Below, in pieces: positions 971 to 12,253 of a stretch of DNA of 12,253 nt. The notes under the pieces were generated by a model, which was not told where the DNA came from, ran no database searches, and saw only the letters and a list, made by a program, of their open reading frames with translations. Position 1 is the first letter of the stretch. Each line of letters starts with the position of its first letter. The translations under genes and the position numbers were made by a program. Source of the stretch: Treponema sp. GTDB lineage: Bacteria > Spirochaetota > Spirochaetia > Treponematales > Treponemataceae. The stretch is from the NCBI GenBank assembly GCA_012513125.1, contig JAAZCS010000048.1:1-12253 (forward strand), in the 5' to 3' direction.

Positions 971-2887
971 TTATGCAGATTTTATTGTTAGTGATTTTTT
1001 TACAAATAGAACTCTAATTGCATTTAATACTGCAAGAATCATTACTCCCACATCAGCAAAAATTGCCATCCACATATTTGCAATTCCTAAGGCTCCAAGT
1101 ATTAAACATAAAAATTTTATTCCAATTGCAAAATAAATATTTTCATATACGATTCTCATACATTTTTGAGAAATGCAAATTGCTTTTGATATTTTAAGCG
1201 GATTGTCGTCCATCAAAACTATATCTGCAGCTTCTATTGCAGCATCAGATCCCATGGCACCCATTGCAATTCCTATATCGGCTCTTGAGAGAACTGGAGC
1301 ATCGTTTATGCCATCTCCAACAAATGCAAGTTTGTCTTTTTCTTTTTTAGAGGAAAGAATTTCTTCTATTTTGGAAACTTTATCGTTTGGTAAAAGTTCG
1401 GAATAAACTTCATCAATTTTTAATTCCTCTGAAACGCTTTTCGCAACACTTGCAACATCTCCTGTAAGCATTATTGTTTTGAAAATGCCACATTTTTTTA
1501 GGTTTGTGATTGCATCTTTGCTTTCTGGCTTGATTATATCCGAAATAACAATATGACCTTCATACTGTCCGTCAATTGCAACGTGAATTATAGTTCCAGT
1601 TGAATGGCATTCAATAAAGTTGATATTTTCTTTTGCCATCAATTTTGCGTTTCCGATAAAAACGTTTTTACCGTCAATGATAGAATTAATTCCCTTTCCG
1701 CTAATTTCTTTTACATCAGTTACTCTTGTTTTATCAAGTGTTTTTCCATATGCTTTTTGAAGGCTTTTACTTATCGGATGATTCGAAAAACTTTCTGCTA
1801 AGGCTGCAATTTCAAGTAAATTCTCATCACTCATTTTGTTATGATGAATTCCGCAAACTTCAAAAACACCTTTTGTCATTGTTCCAGTTTTATCAAAAAC
1901 AACATATTTTACTTTTGATAATGTTTCCAAATAGTTTGAACCTTTAATCAAAATACCGTTACTACTTGCTCCACCTATTCCCGCAAAAAAACTTAATGGA
2001 ATGCTGATAACAAGTGCACAAGGGCAACTAATTACAAGGAATGTCAAAGCTCTGTAAATCCATTGTGACCATAAACCACTTTCATGAAGCAACAGAATTC
2101 TAATGCATGGAGGGATAAAAGCTAGTAAAAAAGCTGAAATACAAACGATTGGTGTATAAACTTTTGCAAATTTTGTAATAAAATTTTCTGATTTTGATTT
2201 TTTGGAGCTGGCGTTTTCAACCAAATCTAAAATTTTAGACGCTGTAGATTCACCAAAAGTTGTGGTCGCTTTGATTTTTAGAATTCCAGTCATATTAATG
2301 CATCCACTTGTAATTTCGTCATTTAGAGTCACTTCACGAGGAATACTTTCGCCTGTTATTGCTGACGTATTGATTGATGAAGTTCCAAAAATAATTGTTC
2401 CATCAACAGGAATTTTTTCACCAGGTTTTACGGTTATCACATCTCCAATTTTTAGGTTGTCAGGATTGATTTTTACCAAATTGCCATTTTCATCTTCAAT
2501 ATTTGCGTAATCTGGTCTAATGTCCATTAATTCACTAATATTTTTTCGGCTTTTTCCAACAGCGTAAGACTGAAAGAATTCTCCAATCTGATAAAAAAGC
2601 ATAACTGCTACACCTTCGGAATATTGGTGAAGTGCAATTGCTCCAACTGTCGATATTGCCATCAAAAAGTTTTCATCGAACGGTTGAAGATTTTTAATTC
2701 CCAATATTGCTTTGAAAAGAATATCATATCCAATTATTGCGTATGAAAGCATTAATAGAGTCAATTTTATGTATTCTCTGACGTTTTCAGAATTTGTAAA
2801 AATGCGAAGCGGGAAAAACTCTGCAAAAATAATAAGAATTGATGAAATAATTATTCTTGTTAAATATTTTTTTTGTTTTTTTGTCAT
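971..2887 (-). CDS. Zn/Cd/Pb-exporting P1B-type ATPase (CadA/ZntA-like)
   Basis: A 638-residue heavy-metal P-type ATPase of the inner membrane, pumping divalent zinc, cadmium or lead out of the cytoplasm at the cost of ATP. Visible elements, in order, are: N-terminal membrane segments; the actuator domain with TGES (178-181); the CPC metal-binding motif in a membrane helix (C288-P289-C290); the phosphorylation motif DKTGT (Asp332); HP (370-371) in the nucleotide-binding domain; MLTGD (473-477); and GDGINDAP (524-531). Asp612 in the last helices (FADVG) sits where the ZntA-type zinc ligand occurs, favouring the P1B-2 Zn/Cd/Pb subgroup over copper pumps. Unlike many family members it has no fused N-terminal HMA domain; a separate HMA protein is encoded just upstream. 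Its Shine-Dalgarno (AAGGA) overlaps the stop codon of that gene, with a 9-nt gap, indicating translational coupling. Confidence 0.95.
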   Translation of the reverse strand: MTKKQKKYLTRIIISSILIIFAEFFPLRIFTNSENVREYIKLTLLMLSYAIIGYDILFKAILGIKNLQPFDENFLMAISTVGAIALHQYSEGVAVMLFYQIGEFFQSYAVGKSRKNISELMDIRPDYANIEDENGNLVKINPDNLKIGDVITVKPGEKIPVDGTIIFGTSSINTSAITGESIPREVTLNDEITSGCINMTGILKIKATTTFGESTASKILDLVENASSKKSKSENFITKFAKVYTPIVCISAFLLAFIPPCIRILLLHESGLWSQWIYRALTFLVISCPCALVISIPLSFFAGIGGASSNGILIKGSNYLETLSKVKYVVFDKTGTMTKGVFEVCGIHHNKMSDENLLEIAALAESFSNHPISKSLQKAYGKTLDKTRVTDVKEISGKGINSIIDGKNVFIGNAKLMAKENINFIECHSTGTIIHVAIDGQYEGHIVISDIIKPESKDAITNLKKCGIFKTIMLTGDVASVAKSVSEELKIDEVYSELLPNDKVSKIEEILSSKKEKDKLAFVGDGINDAPVLSRADIGIAMGAMGSDAAIEAADIVLMDDNPLKISKAICISQKCMRIVYENIYFAIGIKFLCLILGALGIANMWMAIFADVGVMILAVLNAIRVLFVKKSLTIKSA

Positions 2888-2896
2888 AGGTAATCC

Positions 2897-3115
2897 TTAT
2901 AAATAAATTTCACAATCACGTTCTACTTTTTTACAAGCACGAACAACTTCTTTCATTACAGAATCTATGTTTGCAGAAGTAGCAAATTCAATAGTCATTT
3001 TTAGTGTCATAAAGTTTATATTGCAATTAACGACGCCATCAACTTTCTTACTTGCACTTTCCATTTTATCTGCACAATTAGCACAATCTACTTCAATTTT
3101 GTAAGTTTTTTCCAT
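2897..3115 (-). CDS. Free-standing heavy-metal-associated (HMA) domain protein
   Basis: A 72-residue cytosolic protein consisting of a single HMA fold. The metal-binding loop is DCANCADKME, with C11 and C14 as the CxxC ligands, followed by the usual beta-alpha-beta pattern; the acidic residue before the first Cys (D10) resembles zinc-type HMA domains. It lies between the ArsR-family gene and the ATPase gene, and replaces the N-terminal metal-binding domain that the ATPase lacks. The likely role is to bind zinc and present it to the pump or to modulate it (inference). I chose the ATG at 3115: it has GAGGA six bases upstream, begins one base after the ArsR stop codon, and starts just where the HMA fold normally begins. 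An upstream ATG at 3127 would add only four residues and overlap the ArsR gene. Confidence 0.88.
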   Translation of the reverse strand: MEKTYKIEVDCANCADKMESASKKVDGVVNCNINFMTLKMTIEFATSANIDSVMKEVVRACKKVERDCEIYL

Positions 3116-3116
3116 A

Positions 3117-3473
3117 TTAGTCCTCATTTGTATTTTTATGATTTTCTCTTAAATGTGATAATCCACATTCCAAGATGATTGAAACATGATTGTCATCAAG
3201 TGAATATTTTACTTCCTTACCTTCTTTTGTACCTTTTACAAGTTTTGCAGTTTTTAATACTCTAAGTTGATGAGAAACTGCTGATACGCTCATATTAAGA
3301 ATTTCTGCGATTTCTCCAACATATAAGTCTTGGATTTCCAAACAATTCAGGATTTTTGTTCTTGTTGAATCTCCAAAGATTTTGAATAATTCTGCAAGAT
3401 CATAAATTGTATCTTCATCGGCAATCTTGTTTTTTACAAAGTCAGTTGAGGATGTATTTTCTTCTTGATTCAA
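3117..3473 (-). CDS. ArsR/SmtB-family metal-sensing repressor with an alpha-5 zinc site
   Basis: A 118-residue winged-helix dimeric repressor. The recognition region MSVSAVSHQLRVLKTAKLV is classic for the family. The C-terminal helix carries D94-x-H96 and H107-x2-E110, the exact spacing of the SmtB alpha-5 zinc site (D104, H106, H117, E120 in SmtB). The alpha-3 region reads LYVGEIA, where cadmium/lead sensors such as CadC have Cys residues, so sensing of zinc (or cobalt) is favoured over cadmium/lead. It should repress its own operon until zinc is in excess. The start is ambiguous: TTG at 3473 has AAGGA seven bases upstream and is preferred. TTG at 3491 is also in frame and adds six residues, but has no Shine-Dalgarno and abuts the operator. 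Confidence 0.9.
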   Translation of the reverse strand: MNQEENTSSTDFVKNKIADEDTIYDLAELFKIFGDSTRTKILNCLEIQDLYVGEIAEILNMSVSAVSHQLRVLKTAKLVKGTKEGKEVKYSLDDNHVSIILECGLSHLRENHKNTNED

Positions 3474-3492
3474 AATGATTTCCTTGAACAAT

Positions 3493-3506
3493 TGAACATA
3501 TATTCA
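3493..3506 (-). promoter_or_regulatory. SmtB-type operator of the zinc-export operon
   Basis: TGAACA-TA-TATTCA matches the 6-2-6 core of the 12-2-12 inverted repeats bound by SmtB-type repressors. Extending to 12-base arms keeps 8 of 12 symmetric positions. It lies just downstream of the predicted transcription start (about 3513) and ahead of the repressor's own start codon, the usual place for autorepression. Confidence 0.7.
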
Positions 3507-3519
3507 ACTATACAAGGAA

Positions 3520-3548
3520 AATATATAATATAGAGATTGGATTGTCAA
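3520..3548 (-). promoter_or_regulatory. Sigma-70 type promoter of the arsR-HMA-ATPase operon
   Basis: On the minus strand, TTGACA (3548-3543, a perfect -35) is followed after 17 nt by TATATT (3525-3520). Transcription should start near 3513, giving about 40 nt of leader before the preferred TTG at 3473. The operator overlaps the initially transcribed region. Confidence 0.75.
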
Positions 3549-3549
3549 T

Positions 3550-3572
3550 AAAAAATATCATTAAAAAATGAT
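3550..3572 (-). terminator. Terminator after pbpC
   Basis: Immediately after the pbpC stop codon the minus strand reads ATCATT-TTTT-AATGAT (3572-3557), a 6-bp perfect stem with a 4-nt loop. It is followed by A and six T residues (3555-3550). The stem is AT-rich, so efficiency may be modest. The -35 element of the next operon follows within two bases. Confidence 0.5.
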
Positions 3573-5833
3573 TATTTTACTTCAAAAGAGATATTTTTTT
3601 CCATGTTCCCACAAATGATTTTTACTTCATGCTGTCCATATTCAACAGGCATTGAAAAAGAAAAAGGTCTTTCTTGTGTTTTATAAAACGAATTATCATA
3701 AAAAATATCGCAAAAATCTTCATTTCCACCAATTATTTCAAAAGGTATAGCCTGTCTTTGTTGATTTGTATTGTCAAAATAAAATATTGCGTTATTTTGT
3801 GGAGTTCGGATTTCTAAATTTGCACTTGAATATGATATTTTTCCACTGTATCTGCTAATTTCTGCCCATTGTTGATATTCAGATGGCAAAACATACGTTC
3901 CTTCAGCTTTGTGCCACGAACACAGTTCGCTTTTAGTTCCGTTTTCGATATATTCTTTTATTGTGGCATTGCAGTTTTTAGTGGCAATCATTCCGGATAA
4001 AGAGCAGATGTCTTTTTTTGTCCAATTTTCGGGCTCATCAAAAGAGGGTGCTTTTGAAAAATCTTTATATTTTTGAATTGTTAGATTATCAAGAATTTTT
4101 TTTGCCGTAGCTGCTGGTAATGAACTTCCTGTTTTTCCGATTACAGTCTCTCCTGAAAAATTTCCCATCCAGATTCCTATTGTCCAGTCTTTGGTGCTTC
4201 CTAGGGCAATAATGTTTTGATATTGATTAGATGTTCCTGTTTTGAAAATAGAATCGTATTCAGTTTGAAATGTTTGATTGTAACCAAAACCTAAAGCCCT
4301 AGCGTTTTTGTCCGAAAGAATTGAACAAATGATACGTGCGACATCTTTTTCGTATATTTGTTTTTCTTTTTTGTTTTTTTCATTCGTAAATGAGAGTTGC
4401 ATATATTTGCCATCTCGTGAAAAAACACTGAACGCGGTGACAAGTTCATATAGTTTTACTTCACCTGCACCAAGGGCTAGCCCCAAATCTGCTTTTTTTC
4501 CATCTTGTTTTAATGAGTCAAAACCCAATTCAAAAAGTTTATTCAGATATGTTTCAACTCCAACATCGTTTAATATTGCAACAGAAGGAACATTTAAGCT
4601 TGATGATAGTGCAATTCTGAATCTTACAGGACCGTTGTACTTGTTGTTAAAATTATGCGGAATATACAGATTGGAATTTCCAAATTCAAGAGGAATGTCT
4701 TCAAGTATTGAAGATGGAAAATATTTTCTTTTGTGATTTTCATCTCTTTGTTCCATTGAAAGTGCATACAAAAAAGGTTTCATGCTACTTCCAGCCTGAT
4801 TTTTTGTTAAAACTCCGTCAATTTGTCCATTATTAATTGAATCTGACCATGATGCATTTCCAATCCATGCAAGAACAGAACAATCTGCGTTATTTATCAG
4901 CAAAAGTGAAGCGTTGTTGATTCTTGATGAGTTTGACGATTTTAGCGAACTAAACAAAAATGATTCTGCCATATTCTGAATTTTTAAATCAGTTGATAAA
5001 GTAATTTCATTGGGAAGTTCTTTTGTATTATTTTTTACAAACTGAATCAAATGTGGCATTTCAAAAGGGTAGGAAAATAAAGAACTTTTTTTGGCAAAAC
5101 TTCGAATTGTTTCTTTTAGTTCATTTTCATTTGTATATGAAAACGTTTTTTTATACAGAGAATGAGCTTTTTCGCAACAAGCGTCCGGGTTTTTTATTGG
5201 ATTATACAGTGTTGGATTTGGAAGAGATGCAATAAGAAGTGTTATTTCTTCTTTTGTAAGTTCATTCAGTTCCTTTGAAAAAAAAGTTCTTGCAGCGGAT
5301 GTAATTCCTTCACAGTTATAACCGAAAGGAACGTTATTCAAATATAATTCAAGAATCTCTCTTTTTGAAAATCTTGCTTCCATTCTGTATGCGTTAAGTG
5401 CGTCAGTAATTTTTGTATAATAATTTCTGTTAGGATTTTTAGAAATGATTTTTACAAGTTGCATTGTAATAGTTGAAGCACCACGGACATTCTTTTTTGA
5501 TTTTAAATTTTGAAAAAACGCATGAATTATTGCAAATGAATCAACGCCATTATGAAAGTAAAATCTTTTATCTTCTGATTTTATAATTGCTTTTTTTATA
5601 TCTTGAGGAATATTGTCAAAGTCTGTCCATTCACGTCGTAATCCATTTTCAACAGAAGAAATTTGTATTAAAGTGTGATTCCTATCATAAAATCTACAGC
5701 TTTTTTTTCTGTCCATAAATTGAGATAAAGCTTTATATGGTGAAAACCGTAGAAATAAAAATAAAAACAGAAACAAGGCAATTATTAAAATAAGCACCTT
5801 GTTTCTAAAAGATTTTCTTATGATGCTTGTCAT
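3572..5833 (-). CDS. pbpC: Penicillin-binding protein 1C (bifunctional glycosyltransferase/transpeptidase-like)
   Basis: A 753-residue class A PBP, close to the E. coli PBP1C length (770). A cytoplasmic N-terminus and one membrane anchor (about 13-29) precede the GT51 glycosyltransferase domain with SEDKRFYFHNG (catalytic Glu87), RGASTITMQLVK (117-128) and KREILELYLNNVPFG. The penicillin-binding domain has SxxK (Ser349 to Lys352), SLN (412-414) and KTGTS (531-535), so all active-site motifs are intact. The C-terminus is the Cys-rich linker plus beta-sandwich seen in PBP1C (BiPBP_C). It polymerises glycan and acylates beta-lactams at the periplasmic face. The ATG at 5833 overlaps the A2M stop codon (ATGA) without its own Shine-Dalgarno, implying coupling; a GTG at 5869 would add 12 residues but is less convincing. 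Pairing with A2M is the known bacterial arrangement. Confidence 0.93.
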   Translation of the reverse strand: MTSIIRKSFRNKVLILIIALFLFLFLFLRFSPYKALSQFMDRKKSCRFYDRNHTLIQISSVENGLRREWTDFDNIPQDIKKAIIKSEDKRFYFHNGVDSFAIIHAFFQNLKSKKNVRGASTITMQLVKIISKNPNRNYYTKITDALNAYRMEARFSKREILELYLNNVPFGYNCEGITSAARTFFSKELNELTKEEITLLIASLPNPTLYNPIKNPDACCEKAHSLYKKTFSYTNENELKETIRSFAKKSSLFSYPFEMPHLIQFVKNNTKELPNEITLSTDLKIQNMAESFLFSSLKSSNSSRINNASLLLINNADCSVLAWIGNASWSDSINNGQIDGVLTKNQAGSSMKPFLYALSMEQRDENHKRKYFPSSILEDIPLEFGNSNLYIPHNFNNKYNGPVRFRIALSSSLNVPSVAILNDVGVETYLNKLFELGFDSLKQDGKKADLGLALGAGEVKLYELVTAFSVFSRDGKYMQLSFTNEKNKKEKQIYEKDVARIICSILSDKNARALGFGYNQTFQTEYDSIFKTGTSNQYQNIIALGSTKDWTIGIWMGNFSGETVIGKTGSSLPAATAKKILDNLTIQKYKDFSKAPSFDEPENWTKKDICSLSGMIATKNCNATIKEYIENGTKSELCSWHKAEGTYVLPSEYQQWAEISRYSGKISYSSANLEIRTPQNNAIFYFDNTNQQRQAIPFEIIGGNEDFCDIFYDNSFYKTQERPFSFSMPVEYGQHEVKIICGNMEKNISFEVK

Positions 5834-8334
5834 TTTATGATATAAAGGAATCCTTCGCTTCTGCCCCACGTTTCACTTTCGTACATGCATTCACCTTGAA
5901 CAGGTGGAGTCGGATAAACGCCTCTTCTTGTGGCTTTAAAAATGAATTCAATTTTTTCTGAGCCACTATCAAATTCATCATAGAAAAATCTAATTTCGTT
6001 GTTTTTAATTTCCTTGTTTGAAATATCATATGAATAAAAAATAGAATTTGCTTTTGATGAGGTTGTTGCAAATGATGAATCAAGAATTTCAGCTCCAGAC
6101 GGAATAGGCGCTCGCAATGCCACATAAAATCGTTTATTTTTGGATTTTACGCTGATAGTTCCTTTGTAGATTTTTCCACTTTCTAGTTCCATTGTATTAT
6201 TTTTGGCTTTAATGTCGTTTCCTGAATCTGCATCCGTAATATTATATTCTATTTCAAGACCATTTGCGTATGCGTATTGAGATTCGTCTGGAATTGCATA
6301 TTTCAGTTCGGCAGTATAATAAAGATTCCCATTTCCGTCTTTTGTTATATTAAGAGGAATATTTGTATTTAGTGGAAGAGTCGAAATTAAGTTGTCTGTA
6401 AAATCAAGACAAAGTGTGTCTGCTTTAGGATTTAACCCTTTCATTTGTTTACTCATTATTTCGTTATTATTCAATTTCACAGTTGCTAAGTAGTCAGTTT
6501 GCGACAGTTCTCTTTTTTCTATCAAAGTGCCAATTGCATCAAGAACGCAACTTGTTGTAACTGTATTTTTCCAATATCCCAGTGATTGTTTTTGAAGAAG
6601 TGAGAATAAAAGTTTATCAACAAGAATATTGTTTTTATCCGACATCACTAAAGCTTTTAATGAAAGAGCCAGTTCAGAAGATTCAGTGTCAAAATAGAAG
6701 AAAGATTGCTTTTTTGAACCAATAATACTAGCTCCTCTTCCGTTAATTTGAATCCTCTTTGAAATTTCTTTGCATATTGTGTCGGCTTTTACTTTATTTT
6801 CATCTCCTGAATAATTCATGTACGCCATTGCAACATAAGAAAGAGAAGAAACATCCAAGTTGTTCATTTGTTCATAGAGTGCAGAAAGTACTAAATCCAT
6901 ATCAGTGTTTTTGTACAACGAAATAACAAAACATGCATACGCCAAAATTGTTTTGTTTGAATTAGAATTATCTTTTTTTATTGAATTTACAATAAAACTT
7001 TGCATTTTCTGTGAATCAAAATTAAAATCATTTTCCGAAAAACCTTTTTCTAGTGAAAGTGCATAAATATGTGCCATTCTAAGTGTTACAAAAAGAGATT
7101 GATCATCTCCGTTTGGCCAATATGGAAAACCGCCTTCTGTTTTTTGCGATTTATACCAATCTTTAACAGTTGATTTTATACAACTTTTAGCATCAGTGAT
7201 TTTTGAATCCATTCCGAAAACGTCAATATAATCGGAAAATAATAAAAGTGGAAGAACTTTTGAAGATTGCTGTTCTAGACACCCGTATGGGTAATCAAAA
7301 AGATAATTTACAGAAGTTCCAAGCGGACCGAGCCTTGTTGCGTCTAGTGTGATTTTTAATTCTCCGCGATTATCTTTTATATTTGATGGAATTGCAATTT
7401 TTTCAGAAGCTGACGTTTCTTCATCCAAAATTGAACCGGTTGCAGTTGCCGTTTCATATACGAACGTTTTTTCTATATTGATTTTTGAAACAAGTTTTTC
7501 ATTAAAATCATCAGATTTTATTATATAAACTAATTCCACAGTTCCTTCTGCTTGGGCTGCAACATCAAAATAGACAACAGAAGAATCGTTGCTTTGAACT
7601 GTAACTGTGTGTTGAGATTCACCATCTATAAAAGCATTTCCGATTTTAGTTTTCAATCCTTTCGTTTTGTCTGATGAAATGTCATCTGTTATTTGTCTCG
7701 TTTCAACTGTTACAGAAACTTTTTGGCTTTTATCTGTTAGATTTGTGATTAAAACTCCACATTCAGCCGTATCACGTTCGCGAAGCATTCTAGGTTGCAC
7801 TTTTTGTATATTAATAGGATTTTGAACAAGAGCCTCGCTTTCGTTCAATGCAAATAAGTCATTTTTTACACCAAAAGCAGTTATTCTGTATGTTGTTAAA
7901 TTATCCGGGAAATTGAATGAATATTTTACAGTTCCATCTTGTCCTGTAATAAGGGAAGGTTCAAAGAATGCAGTTGCTCTAAAATCCTTTCTTTCAGATT
8001 CATCTTCATCCTTTTCTGCCTCAGCATCTCCACCTTGCAAATCTTTTATTGAATAGATTACAGGATTCATCAAATAGTCTCTTGAATCTCCACCAGTCGT
8101 ATAGAGAGGATAGTGTGAAGGATTATAGAAAAAGTCGATTGGATTTGGAACATGGTAATTAACTAAATCTAGTACGCTTCTGGCTGCCGCAAAAACAGTT
8201 AGTTCTGCATTTTCAACAGGTTTTCCACCTTTTGTTGCTTTTAATGTTAATGTCGCTTTTTCACCTGGTTTATATTTGTCTTTATCAAGTTTCATTGTAA
8301 CTGAAAATGACATTACGTCTGGATTTATGAACAA
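5830..8334 (-). CDS. Alpha-2-macroglobulin C-terminal half (bait region and thioester domain)
   Basis: 834 residues in the same frame as the upstream half, separated from it by one TAA and 27 further sense codons (8415-8335). It contains a macroglobulin beta-sandwich (KLDKDKYKPGEKATLTLKAT), a bait-like stretch (about 60-118) rich in Gly and charged residues, and the A2M domain (FFEPSLITGQDG...PRMLRERD). The thioester motif PYGCLEQ follows (Cys352, Glu354, Gln355) in an alpha/alpha toroid-like region. The normal C-terminal signature is RGVYPTPPVQGECMY...G. The thioester allows covalent trapping of proteases once the bait is cut. The fragment has no signal peptide, so as a separate protein it would stay in the cytoplasm and could not work. 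TTG at 8334 with GGAG eight bases upstream is a possible restart, but may be chance. Confidence 0.85.
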   Translation of the reverse strand: MFINPDVMSFSVTMKLDKDKYKPGEKATLTLKATKGGKPVENAELTVFAAARSVLDLVNYHVPNPIDFFYNPSHYPLYTTGGDSRDYLMNPVIYSIKDLQGGDAEAEKDEDESERKDFRATAFFEPSLITGQDGTVKYSFNFPDNLTTYRITAFGVKNDLFALNESEALVQNPINIQKVQPRMLRERDTAECGVLITNLTDKSQKVSVTVETRQITDDISSDKTKGLKTKIGNAFIDGESQHTVTVQSNDSSVVYFDVAAQAEGTVELVYIIKSDDFNEKLVSKINIEKTFVYETATATGSILDEETSASEKIAIPSNIKDNRGELKITLDATRLGPLGTSVNYLFDYPYGCLEQQSSKVLPLLLFSDYIDVFGMDSKITDAKSCIKSTVKDWYKSQKTEGGFPYWPNGDDQSLFVTLRMAHIYALSLEKGFSENDFNFDSQKMQSFIVNSIKKDNSNSNKTILAYACFVISLYKNTDMDLVLSALYEQMNNLDVSSLSYVAMAYMNYSGDENKVKADTICKEISKRIQINGRGASIIGSKKQSFFYFDTESSELALSLKALVMSDKNNILVDKLLFSLLQKQSLGYWKNTVTTSCVLDAIGTLIEKRELSQTDYLATVKLNNNEIMSKQMKGLNPKADTLCLDFTDNLISTLPLNTNIPLNITKDGNGNLYYTAELKYAIPDESQYAYANGLEIEYNITDADSGNDIKAKNNTMELESGKIYKGTISVKSKNKRFYVALRAPIPSGAEILDSSFATTSSKANSIFYSYDISNKEIKNNEIRFFYDEFDSGSEKIEFIFKATRRGVYPTPPVQGECMYESETWGRSEGFLYIIK

Positions 8335-8415
8335 TGTAGTTGCTCCAAAATATCCTTTTGGTTTGTTTATATCAGTTTCGCCAAATTTCTGCGTTGGTTC
8401 TTTAGTTCTGCTTGA

Positions 8416-11400
8416 TTATGATGAAACAGTCACATAGACAACCGGAATATAATTTCTGGCAATTTTTATGTTGATTATATTTGACGGAGAATCAAAGTGG
8501 TAAATTTCTTCTGTAAAAATTCCTTCTCTTTCTGTTGTAACAAGATAATCACCACGAGGAAGAGGACTTTCCAAAAGAATTTGTGCCGTGTCGCCAGGAT
8601 TATAAAGTGAAGCTGATGGAGTTAAATTGATGCTTTCGGCGTTGTTTGAGTCTGGTCTAATAAAATCTCCACCTGAAACATAAAATTCATATTCAGTTGT
8701 GACTTTATTATTGTTTTTGTCTTCACCAAAAAATGTAATCTTATTCCATCCTGAGTTTTTTGGAATGAATTTAAATGTACCTTTGTTAGCAATTTGTATG
8801 TCACCAGAATCATCTATAATTTTATTTTCTTTATATCTAGTATAAACTGAATTATCAACAGCTTTTTCTTGTACTAACGACCATTCCGTGTGAGAAAGTT
8901 CATATTTTAATGATTTGATGTCCTTTTTTGACCCAATAAGTTCGCCTTCAGGATTTACAATAATATATGGAATTTGGATTTCTTTATTCTTCTGTGAAAA
9001 TCCAACTATATTCTGTTTTAGCCCAATATAAAATAAAGCTGGATGAACAATTACACTGTTAGTTGCTGCGATTGTCTGGTTTGAAATATCTGTTACCTCG
9101 ACTTCAACTCGATATTCAAAAGTTTTTCCATATACGTTTTTATCTGTGATACAAATGGAATCCGCAGTTCCTTGATTTGAAAGTGTTCCGTTCGTGGACG
9201 AATATTGATTTCTGCCATAAGAAAGAGACGAAAATCCGAATGTATAATTTTCATTTTGTAAATTAGTCGGTTGATATTTAATTTCTTGTTTGTACCAGTT
9301 TGTTTCATAATTGGCTCCGCTTAAATATCCACCTGCCAAATATGACGCGTTCAGTTGTGCCTTTATTTCATCCCCGGCAAAGTATGTTTTCTCTGGAATA
9401 TCAATTTGTGATTGTGTTTTCAGCTCTTCAAAGCTTGCAACTTTTATGTAAACTCTGTCCGTGTTATACCACTTAATCTCTTCTTCATTATCATCTGATT
9501 TTCGTGTGTACATTAAGGCATAAGTTCCATTTTTTATATCTTGTGGAAGTGTGAAAGAACCGTAAAAGCCACCGCTATCTGATAATTCACCATTAATTGT
9601 AGAAATTGCATTTTCGTCTGATGAATTTATATTTTGCAGATTAATTAAATATTCACCTTTGTTTATTTGTAATTGTCCCAATATTTGATTTCTATCGATT
9701 CCTTTAAACGTTACTGTTTCACCAGGTTTATATAACATTCTGTCAACAAAAAAGAATGTTTGTTGAACACTTTTCATTGCTTTTGTAATACTGCTTTTGT
9801 AATCTACATATCTCCATTCAGTGTGTGAATTTGGAGTGAATATTGCCTTGTCTTTTCCATTTTTTACTAATAAAGCAATTGGATTATCTCTATCATTCAA
9901 ATTCTCTGATAAAAAGAAATTTTGATGTTCATTATCAATGATTATAATAGCAATTCCATTCTTATCTGTAATTCCTTTTGCAAGGCTTGTTTCCTCGTCT
10001 AAGTCAGAAGAATAAGTTAATGGAAGAACAAATACTTCTGCATTTTCAATAGGTTTTCCGCTACTAAGGCTTCTTACCATAACAACAGCTTTGTTTATTC
10101 CAATTCTGCAAGTGATTCCTAAATCCGTAACCTGAACAGTTAAATAGTTTTTATCTGAGTACAGACTATTATCTTTATTAGGAAGAAAGCAATTTGTGTA
10201 AATTTCTGCAAACCCAAATCCATCATCCAAATACGAATCTAAATCAATTTCGTAAAATTGTTTTTTGTTCAATTCTCCAACAGGCAACTTTTTATTTTCT
10301 GATAGTGAGTTTTGATAATCTATGAATAAAGGGTTGTTTGTTTTTTGAACAGAGTAATAGGAATCTTCGTTAATATTTTGATAGCAGTAGATTAATTTAT
10401 GTGGATATTGGGCTTCCATCATTTTGAAGCCATTATCAAGATATGTGATGTACGATTTTGCATTTCCTATTTTGATATTGTATTCAAGAAATGATTTATC
10501 ACCGGTGTTGAAATTTTGACCGTAAATATCTTTTAATCCATTTTTTAATTTGAATGTGAACGAGGAATTGTATGTTAGCGGAAGATTATACAGACAAAGT
10601 GTTTTGTAATTTATTTTAATATTTTCTTCTGTAATTTTATAATCAAGCGATGTCTCAATATTATCAATTATTGTTTTTGAATCAATTTCTTGTGTAAAAC
10701 GAGCTTCCAGATGACTTGATGATTGGTCATATACAATATACGGTTCTTTATCCCCATTGAGTGAGAATTTTTTTAATGTATTATATGAAAAGTTTTTGTC
10801 ATCGTTACTTGTTCTAAAATATATTTTTGAATTAATTGGCACTTCATCAGTAATGTTTATTACAAATGTATTTGTTATTTCTTTGCTTTGATTACAGATT
10901 AATTTTCCGTTCCATGAAAAATCTGATTTGTCATATAGTGGAACAGCTTCAAACTTCATCAGCTGTTTTTTAGTTGAGCACTTTATGGAAAGTTCTTTTA
11001 TTATCTGCTCTTTTGAAATTGCATAATTCACTCTCATGAAGACTTTTTTTTCATAAGGTGGGCAAATTTCATCGTATCCATAATATCTATCATTTTGACC
11101 AATGTAGCCTGGCATAAAAGTTGTAATAGAAAGAGGTGGAGTTTTTACTGTGAAAACTGATTCACCTTTTAGTGTTTTTTTATCAATTGATTTTAGATTT
11201 TTATTAACTGTAATTGTGTATTCTGTAGAAAAATCAAGATTCTCTTCTGCTTCAAAGCACACATGGTTTGTTCTAATCCATCTTTCTTTTCCTTTTAATG
11301 GAGGATTGATTTCTAGAATATTATTTGCTTTTGATTTTGACTGCAAGCTAGATAATTCAATTACAGGTTTCGAAAATATTACATAAAAAGATGGATTTTC

Positions 11401-11862
11401 AATGTTGTCTTCATCAAAAGATGTAGGTCCCCATGTTACGACTGTAAAATCCTTGTCATCCTGAATCGTCTCATCTTCAGAATTTGCATTTGTTACGATA
11501 GGTAATTTCTGTTTTTCAGTGTAGTATTTTGTTTTGTAATCAGCCAAATTTCTAATTTTATTTATGAATGATTCACTTTTTTCTGATGAATCTGTTTTTT
11601 GATTTATTTTCTTTGTGTTTATTTTGTTTGATTTAGAATTAACTTCAGGTTCTAAAGGGGTATAGTCAAGTGTGAATAAATTATTCATTTCGTTTTCAAT
11701 ATTGTCATAAAGAATGTTAGAATCATATAATTTATCAGAAATTAATTTGTTTTCGCCTTTTTGATTGGCTAAGTTTGTATTTACATCTTTTTTTGAATTA
11801 CAACCAACAAATAAGAATGGTATTGCTAAGAATAAAGTTAAATATTTTAATATATTTTTCAT
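8416..11862 (-). CDS. Alpha-2-macroglobulin N-terminal half, lipoprotein
   Basis: 1148 residues up to the TAA. The N-terminus is a lipoprotein signal: MKNIL, a hydrophobic stretch, then LFVGC with Cys21 as the lipidated residue. A polar low-complexity linker follows (about 22-135), as expected for a membrane-tethered periplasmic protein. From about 140 comes a Big_5/MG1-like domain (FSKPVIEL...NHVCFEAEENLDFSTEYTITV). At about 600 there is a beta-sandwich with GKPIENAEVFV and TDKNG. At about 705-720 is the MG2 signature DRMLYKPGETVTFKG. Further MG-like strands run to the end. The product stops before the bait and thioester domains, so alone it cannot trap proteases. The ATG at 11862 has GAGGA (11877-11873) ten bases upstream and is the obvious start for the signal peptide. 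It is transcribed divergently from the ilv leader and precedes pbpC, as in other bacteria. Confidence 0.88.
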   Translation of the reverse strand: MKNILKYLTLFLAIPFLFVGCNSKKDVNTNLANQKGENKLISDKLYDSNILYDNIENEMNNLFTLDYTPLEPEVNSKSNKINTKKINQKTDSSEKSESFINKIRNLADYKTKYYTEKQKLPIVTNANSEDETIQDDKDFTVVTWGPTSFDEDNIENPSFYVIFSKPVIELSSLQSKSKANNILEINPPLKGKERWIRTNHVCFEAEENLDFSTEYTITVNKNLKSIDKKTLKGESVFTVKTPPLSITTFMPGYIGQNDRYYGYDEICPPYEKKVFMRVNYAISKEQIIKELSIKCSTKKQLMKFEAVPLYDKSDFSWNGKLICNQSKEITNTFVINITDEVPINSKIYFRTSNDDKNFSYNTLKKFSLNGDKEPYIVYDQSSSHLEARFTQEIDSKTIIDNIETSLDYKITEENIKINYKTLCLYNLPLTYNSSFTFKLKNGLKDIYGQNFNTGDKSFLEYNIKIGNAKSYITYLDNGFKMMEAQYPHKLIYCYQNINEDSYYSVQKTNNPLFIDYQNSLSENKKLPVGELNKKQFYEIDLDSYLDDGFGFAEIYTNCFLPNKDNSLYSDKNYLTVQVTDLGITCRIGINKAVVMVRSLSSGKPIENAEVFVLPLTYSSDLDEETSLAKGITDKNGIAIIIIDNEHQNFFLSENLNDRDNPIALLVKNGKDKAIFTPNSHTEWRYVDYKSSITKAMKSVQQTFFFVDRMLYKPGETVTFKGIDRNQILGQLQINKGEYLINLQNINSSDENAISTINGELSDSGGFYGSFTLPQDIKNGTYALMYTRKSDDNEEEIKWYNTDRVYIKVASFEELKTQSQIDIPEKTYFAGDEIKAQLNASYLAGGYLSGANYETNWYKQEIKYQPTNLQNENYTFGFSSLSYGRNQYSSTNGTLSNQGTADSICITDKNVYGKTFEYRVEVEVTDISNQTIAATNSVIVHPALFYIGLKQNIVGFSQKNKEIQIPYIIVNPEGELIGSKKDIKSLKYELSHTEWSLVQEKAVDNSVYTRYKENKIIDDSGDIQIANKGTFKFIPKNSGWNKITFFGEDKNNNKVTTEYEFYVSGGDFIRPDSNNAESINLTPSASLYNPGDTAQILLESPLPRGDYLVTTEREGIFTEEIYHFDSPSNIINIKIARNYIPVVYVTVSS

Positions 11863-11951
11863 TTATAACTCTTCCTCTGTTTTGATTTACCAATTTTACA
11901 ATAATTACATATTAAAGAATAGTTCATTTTCTCATTGATAATCATCCCATC
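11863..11951. other. Divergent intergenic region, A2M side
   Basis: AT-rich spacer upstream of the A2M gene. It holds that gene's Shine-Dalgarno (11873-11877), and its promoter must lie here or slightly further right. Several TAAAAT/TAATAT-like hexamers occur on the minus strand, for example TAAAAT around 11899-11894, but none has a convincing -35 at the right spacing, so no promoter is called. Confidence 0.5.
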
Positions 11952-11979
11952 TTGACTATTTTCTAGTTTTGTGTAAAAT
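11952..11979 (+). promoter_or_regulatory. Sigma-70 type promoter of the ilv leader/ilvB transcript
   Basis: TTGACT (11952-11957) and TAAAAT (11974-11979) are separated by 16 nt. The predicted start, about 7 nt downstream of the -10, is near 11986, which is the A of the leader-peptide ATG. Confidence 0.7.
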
Positions 11980-11985
11980 AAAAAT

Positions 11986-12060
11986 ATGATTATTCTTTCA
12001 CTAGTCAAAGTGCTATCAGTTCTCGTCCTAAACAGTATTAATACTGGGGTACAACTGTAG
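11986..12060 (+). CDS. Branched-chain amino acid leader peptide (attenuator control peptide)
   Basis: A 24-codon open frame, ATG to TAG, with six Leu, five Val and three Ile codons: 14 of 24 residues. The first fifteen residues read MIILSLVKVLSVLVL. It lies directly after a promoter and before a terminator upstream of an acetolactate synthase gene, the layout of ilv leader peptides. It is not expected to have a function as a protein; the ribosome's position on it reports charged Leu, Val and Ile tRNA. There is no Shine-Dalgarno upstream, and the predicted transcription start coincides with the ATG, so translation may be leaderless. Three of the six Leu codons are CTA, one is CTC and one CTG, in an AT-rich genome; this may sharpen stalling (inference). 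Confidence 0.85.
   Translation: MIILSLVKVLSVLVLNSINTGVQL
12033..12049 (+). promoter_or_regulatory. Attenuator switch: palindromic hairpin and antiterminator strand
   Basis: CAGTATTAATACTG (12033-12046) is a perfect 14-bp palindrome able to form a 5-bp hairpin with a TTAA loop. ACTGGGG (12043-12049) can instead pair with CTCCAGT (12102-12108), which includes part of the 5' arm and loop of the terminator. The two pairings share ACTG and exclude each other. A ribosome stalled on the Leu/Val codons would block the hairpin and free the antiterminator. A ribosome at the stop codon would cover it and allow termination. This mechanism is inferred from pairing by eye. Confidence 0.55.
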
Positions 12061-12095
12061 TATTTGTGAATGGTGGTTTCATTTATATATAGCAG

Positions 12096-12127
12096 AAAGC
12101 TCTCCAGTTTGGGGAGCTTTTTTTTTT
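12096..12127 (+). terminator. Intrinsic terminator of the ilv attenuator
   Basis: AAAGCTCTCC (12096-12105) and GGGGAGCTTT (12111-12120) form a 10-bp stem, with one G-U pair and a 5-nt loop. The stem runs into an uninterrupted T tract from 12118 to 12127. It is by far the strongest hairpin in the window and sits between the leader peptide and ilvB, so it should gate transcription into the structural gene. Confidence 0.88.
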
Positions 12128-12174
12128 ATAGATGATTGTAGAATAATTAATCTTTTTATTTTTAGGATGCGATT

Positions 12175-12253
12175 ATGAATAAAACTGGTGCAGAAATTAT
12201 TGTTCATATGCTCGAAATGTATGGCATTGACACAGTAGCGGGAATTCCTGGAG
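12175..12253 (+). CDS. ilvB: Acetolactate synthase large subunit, N-terminal start (partial)
   Basis: Only the first 26 codons are in the window; the gene runs off the right edge. TGAEIIVHMLEMYGIDTVAGIPG is the N-terminal beta-alpha unit of thiamine-diphosphate enzymes of the acetolactate synthase family, ending at the conserved GxPG. Several related ThDP enzymes share this segment, but the upstream branched-chain leader peptide and terminator point to acetolactate synthase. That enzyme condenses pyruvate with pyruvate or 2-oxobutyrate as the first common step of Val, Leu and Ile synthesis. The start is supported by AGGA (12164-12167) seven bases upstream. Expression should be set by the attenuator just before it; an ilvN small-subunit gene would be expected downstream. 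Confidence 0.85.
   Translation, partial: MNKTGAEIIVHMLEMYGIDTVAGIPG

What the first reader, a model, noticed from the sequence alone, without database searches (positions are those of the whole stretch)
8416..8418. Single in-frame stop splits an otherwise intact alpha-2-macroglobulin
The frame is open for about 860 codons after the TAA and contains an intact thioester motif and C-terminal domain. The context TCA TCA TAA TCA AGC fits one C-to-A change. The break separates the signal peptide from the bait and thioester, so the protease trap would be lost unless the stop is read through, the second half restarts (TTG 8334), or the base is an error.
Basis: seen in the sequence. Interest (0 to 1): 0.7.

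Follow-up and report, generated by a model that had tools for sequence, protein, structure and literature searches.

The report
Stray stop in bacterial alpha-2-macroglobulin gene
One draft genome of a treponeme carries a stray stop codon in the gene for a protease-trapping protein; a near-identical intact copy exists, so this is an ordinary one-off mutation or sequence error, not a new kind of split gene.

Summary
A TAA at 8416-8418 (minus strand) interrupts a type I bacterial alpha-2-macroglobulin (YfhM/ECAM kind) directly upstream of pbpC. The frame before it has 1148 codons and the frame after it 861; the CLEQ thioester motif and C-terminal domain are intact but lie after the stop. The lesion is private among what was seen. 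The 37 orthologous loci fetched from the genus (picked from the best hits) each run through the site in one frame, one of them with 29 undetermined codons elsewhere, and none of the listed genus matches to the second half has a stop inside (listing cut). A database holds a 2010-residue intact copy (1148+1+861) that differs from the window pieces at 6 of 2009 residues. The stop looks recent: the intact sister already carries nearly all of this lineage's unusual substitutions. Conserved split, readthrough and recoding have no support. What remains is a strain-level null allele or a base error in a fragmented draft genome (406 contigs, 80.62% complete); without reads these cannot be told apart. 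Ordinary finding.

The parts
8419..11862 (-). First piece of the alpha-2-macroglobulin gene, 1148 codons from ATG 11862: lipoprotein-like signal (LFVGC, cysteine codon 11802-11800), Big_5, bMG3, MG2, first half of the bait-region domain
   Evidence: ORF list; Pfam scan; lipobox by pattern match only
8416..8418 (-). Internal TAA stop codon, private to this assembly among the sequences seen
5830..8415 (-). Second piece, 861 open codons plus terminal TGA: A2M domain, thioester motif, bMG10 C-terminal domain
7270..7281 (-). Thioester motif CLEQ; C, E and Q invariant in 37 of 37 fetched relatives
8332..8334 (-). First possible start (TTG) after the stop, with GGAG at 8346-8343, eight bases between them; those bases also encode a conserved stretch of the protein, so the match may be a by-product
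3572..5833 (-). pbpC (penicillin-binding protein 1C); likely start ATG 5833-5831 overlaps the A2M stop TGA 5832-5830 as ATGA (the mechanical ORF list starts it at GTG 5869)
   Evidence: start and overlap read by eye

Best explanation
This is a type I bacterial alpha-2-macroglobulin gene (the yfhM/ECAM kind, next to pbpC) of a Treponema, broken by one private nonsense codon that is either a recent strain-level mutation or a base error of the assembly. If it is real, translation would end in the first half of the bait-region domain. The product would be a 1148-residue lipid-anchored fragment without bait, thioester or C-terminal lock, so the protease trap would be lost. The 861-codon remainder shows no signal peptide by eye and would not be exported even if it restarted. 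pbpC, whose likely start overlaps the A2M stop, could be expressed less (polarity, lost coupling). Shown: the stop, the intact sister copy, intact relatives. Inferred: loss of function and the effect on pbpC. Between the two causes I put real mutation at about 0.5 and error at about 0.4.
For: Intact 2010-residue sister copy P0096, 6 differences in 2009 compared residues, in a cluster of 17 member sequences. The 37 fetched orthologous loci each have one frame of 2002-2087 codons, 36 fully read and one with 29 undetermined codons; none of the listed genus matches to the second piece has a stop inside (157 of 200 genomes match; listing cut). The stop replaces a residue kind conserved in 37 of 37. 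No other stop occurs in either piece, and their lengths add up exactly to the sister's. At columns invariant in the 37, the window deviates at 2 of 104 (first piece) and 11 of 141 (second), the intact sister at 2 of 104 and 10 of 141, so the lineage's divergence predates the stop. Draft genome of 406 contigs, 80.62% complete. The abstract of PMC11017572 says that many putative bacterial pseudogenes are attributable to assembly errors, with coverage among the likely causes.
Against: No reads are held, so mutation and error cannot be separated. The 17 cluster members may include fragments; only the representative is seen to be intact. In 11 readable contigs of 20 asked for (126,170 bases) no other clear same-frame split gene was seen, so this assembly is not obviously full of internal stops. 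The window's A2M branch is the longest of 38 in both pieces but only sixth of 36 in PbpC, which taken alone could mean older relaxed constraint.
Confidence: 0.9

Rival explanations
1. Base error or consensus error in the assembly; the organism's gene is intact.
For: Private to this assembly; near-identical intact copy exists; fragmented draft genome. The window also has one private substitution, 78 codons after the stop, at a column invariant in 37 of 37 relatives and shared by the sister, as expected of unreliable sequence (or of a dead gene); since 249 of 2009 columns are invariant, one such hit in six differences is not unusual.
Against: No other clear internal stop in 126,170 sampled bases of the same draft genome.
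Confidence: 0.4
2. True strain-level null allele: a recent nonsense mutation that removes the periplasmic protease trap in some strains.
For: Clean single lesion, open frame on both sides, intact near-identical copy elsewhere. One other A2M locus in the genus has an internal TAA (L107) and one a change of frame near a contig end (L108), so sporadic loss of these genes is plausible; those may be errors too.
Against: No second stop-bearing copy was found; no reads.
Confidence: 0.5
3. Functional split: two separate proteins, the second restarted at TTG 8334.
For: A GGAG lies 8 bases before TTG 8334.
Against: No signal peptide visible on the second piece (by eye, no predictor run); no fetched or listed relative has the stop; the GGAG encodes a conserved protein stretch.
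Confidence: 0.03
4. Stop-codon readthrough or recoding yields the full protein.
For: Both halves look constrained.
Against: No stop at this site in the 37 fetched relatives, so no sign of a selected recoding site; no RNA family hit in the window at gathering score; TAA followed by T is, from recall, an efficient terminator in bacteria; the neighbouring genes are open under the ordinary code.
Confidence: 0.03

Closest known systems
Type I bacterial alpha-2-macroglobulin (E. coli YfhM/ECAM, Salmonella SaA2M)
   Same: Lipoprotein-like signal, MG domains, bait-region domain, CXEQ thioester, C-terminal MG domain, adjacent pbpC (PMC4498604 and PMC5764988, passages seen). phmmer of an intact relative, P0095, finds 5a42, 4ziq, 4rtd and 4u48 among 9 sequences.
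   Different: This copy is interrupted by a stop that aligns near residue 787 of chain 5a42_A, upstream of the bait region (counted by eye on the alignment). Sequence similarity to ECAM is weak (63.6 bits).
Intact sister copy P0096 (same species or strain group, inferred from identity)
   Same: Length 2010 = 1148+1+861; 6 differences in 2009 residues.
   Different: No internal stop.
Internal-stop pseudogenes, real or spurious, in draft bacterial assemblies
   Same: Single internal stop in an otherwise conserved gene; PMC11017572 (abstract and passages seen).
   Different: Cause not determined here.

Membership tests
Type I bacterial alpha-2-macroglobulin | MG/bait/A2M/C-terminal MG domains | tested here: met
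   Pfam scan of the pieces apart, (A2M_BRD 20.7 bits, below its 22.7 cut-off); MG2, bMG3, A2M_BRD, A2M and bMG10 are listed for the intact sister
Type I bacterial alpha-2-macroglobulin | CXEQ thioester motif | tested here: met
   CLEQ at 7281-7270; C, E and Q in 37 of 37 relatives
Type I bacterial alpha-2-macroglobulin | Export with lipid anchor | tested here: inconclusive
   The window matches only a looser lipobox pattern (LFVGC), which also hits 25 of 37 relatives' untrimmed frames; a stricter pattern hits 13 of 37. No signal-peptide predictor was run
Type I bacterial alpha-2-macroglobulin | Neighbour pbpC | tested here: met
   PBP_1c is the best NCBIfam model, 461.5 bits, just under its 494.2 cut-off; PbpC found in 35 of 37 relative loci
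Type I bacterial alpha-2-macroglobulin | One continuous chain (bait and thioester joined to the anchored part) | tested here: not met
   Stop at 8416-8418 in this copy; met in sister P0096
Conserved split gene | Same break in relatives | tested here: not met
Programmed readthrough | Conserved stop at the site across relatives | tested here: not met
Assembly error | Reads without the stop | not testable with these tools
   no reads held
Old decaying pseudogene | More lesions and more deviation at conserved sites than in an intact sister | tested here: not met
   One lesion only; 11 against 10 deviations of 141 and 2 against 2 of 104

The most novel reading that the evidence does not exclude
The species segregates intact and null alleles of its periplasmic protease trap; the null allele makes only an anchored, trap-less stub and, through the overlapping start of pbpC, also lowers penicillin-binding protein 1C. 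The A2M-PbpC unit would then be switched down in some host niches.
Probability: 0.15. Interest if true: 0.35.

Novelty: already known. Interest (0 to 1): 0.1.

Why it matters
Mainly as a caution: a clean single stop in one draft genome looks like gene loss or recoding until a near-identical intact copy is found. If the stop is real, it would show loss of a protease-trap gene within a treponeme species and allow a test of whether the A2M gene is needed for pbpC expression.

Tried and rejected
Readthrough, recoding and functional split: rejected because the fetched relatives and the sister copy have no stop there and none of the listed genus rows has one in the second piece. Old pseudogene: the window's A2M has the longest terminal branch of 38 in both pieces and the highest invariant-site deviation rate in the second piece, 11 of 147 on 35 relatives, against 11 of 158 for the next; but the intact sister copy shares nearly all of it, so this marks a divergent lineage rather than decay. 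Protein search with the first piece gave 5 proteins, best 37% identity, probably because its length limit (1.75 times the query) just excludes a 2010-residue protein; the later profile search found the sister. Search with the second piece gave 89 proteins, 51% at best over the full length and up to 63% over parts. No tRNA and no Rfam match at gathering score in the window. Promoter and terminator scan of 3000-12253 near chance level (52 against 45.3, sd 6.5; 3 against 2.9). Paper searches: for broken bacterial A2Ms (20 listed of 569, 15 of 112), for bacterial A2M with PBP1c (12 of 8,501), for internal stops in draft genomes (10 of 76) and for Treponema A2M (8 of 23); none of the titles listed is on this case. 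The first two scripts for same-frame splits gave nothing, because withheld stretches read N; corrected, where the A2M split served as positive control and was found. That script misses splits with a piece under 60 codons or with a weak codon score.

Full report
Observation. The minus strand of the window holds an alpha-2-macroglobulin (A2M) gene followed by pbpC. An ATG-started frame of 1148 codons (11862-8419) ends in TAA at 8418-8416; the same frame is then open for 861 codons to a TGA at 5832-5830. Before the stop Pfam finds Big_5, bMG3, MG2 and, just below its cut-off, the first half of A2M_BRD (20.7 against 22.7 bits); after it A2M and bMG10. The thioester motif CLEQ is at 7281-7270, and its C, E and Q are invariant in 37 of 37 fetched relatives. 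The gene after it matches PBP_1c with 461.5 bits, a little under NCBI's cut-off of 494.2; its likely ATG overlaps the A2M stop as ATGA (read by eye). The same ATGA string stands at the A2M stop in 8 of 37 relatives.

Where it is. The window is a whole contig (12,253 bases) of a draft genome of 2.27 Mb in 406 contigs, 80.62% complete. That it is metagenome-assembled is my inference; no call says so. One relative of the same genus (G015) has a contig of 629,619 bases, the length of the contig behind a protein named as Treponema bryantii (P0126), and other relatives are named Treponema sp., so the group is Treponema in the broad sense. Only one A2M was found in this genome (for the first piece; the own row for the second), but a fifth of the genome may be missing.

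Relatives. Of the 200 genomes held for the genus, 157 match the second piece, and no listed match has a stop inside it; the listing was cut. With the first piece 128 of 196 match, and among the listed rows one, an A2M of G191, has a stop inside (listing cut). I fetched 40 loci: 37 chosen from the best-scoring hits and three because they looked broken. The 37 each have a single frame of 2002-2087 codons (stop to stop); 36 are fully read and one has 29 undetermined codons away from the site. Since they were picked from the top of the tables, this is not an unbiased count. PbpC was found in 35 of the 37 loci.

Sister copy. A profile search returned P0096, 2010 residues, in a cluster of 17 member sequences, sources not shown. 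Its length equals 1148+1+861. It differs from the first piece at 4 of 1148 residues and from the second at 2 of 861, and has no break; because it differs, it is not the window's own sequence read through. At the six differences the window agrees with more of the 37 relatives at one, the sister at two (one of them invariant in 37 of 37), and neither with any relative at three. Cluster members may include fragments, so I claim one intact copy, not seventeen.

Age of the lesion. On trees of each piece the window has the longest terminal branch of 38 (1.03 and 0.77), but in PbpC it ranks sixth of 36 (0.50). At sites invariant in 35 relatives it deviates at 3 of 108 (first piece), 11 of 147 (second) and 4 of 143 (PbpC); other lineages without close sisters reach 11 of 158 in the second piece. 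The sister copy deviates almost equally (2 of 104 and 10 of 141, against 2 and 11 for the window; 37 relatives). The divergence is therefore older than the stop, and the stop is recent or an error.

Assembly quality. I asked for 20 of the 406 contigs. Nine were withheld; the other 11 (126,170 bases) gave nine same-frame neighbours, each with a start codon 0-13 codons after the stop, which by eye look like ordinary adjacent genes (not checked by homology). The window gave two, one of them the A2M break, which has the longest start-free run of the eleven (27 codons). The genome is thus not obviously full of internal stops, but one error cannot be excluded; PMC11017572 (abstract and passages seen) reports that many putative pseudogenes in assemblies are artefacts.

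Mechanism. [quoted passage not shown] The stop aligns near residue 787 of chain 5a42_A, upstream of the bait (counted by eye). A truncated product would keep the anchor and lose bait, thioester and lock; the remainder shows no export signal by eye. Loss of function is inferred, not shown.

Verdict. The sequence observation is confirmed; the biology is an ordinary private nonsense lesion or a base error. Probability: real allele about 0.5, error about 0.4, functional split or readthrough about 0.06 together.

Noticed in passing
L107 (G191:C22), L108 (G003:C51), L106 (G059:C116): Other A2M loci in the genus are interrupted: L107 by an internal TAA, L108 by a change of frame near a contig end, L106 by a change of frame beside a run of undetermined bases, which may be only a scaffold gap. 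Real losses or assembly faults.
   Followed up: partly
window 971-3491, minus strand: An ArsR/SmtB-type metalloregulator (3117-3491) beside a heavy-metal P-type ATPase (971-2887), with a Fur/PerR-like regulator at 499-918 (the Fur/PerR matches are below NCBI's cut-offs).
   Followed up: no
window 5830-5833, minus strand: ATGA overlap between the A2M stop and the likely pbpC start; the same string stands at the A2M stop in 8 of 37 relatives.
   Followed up: partly
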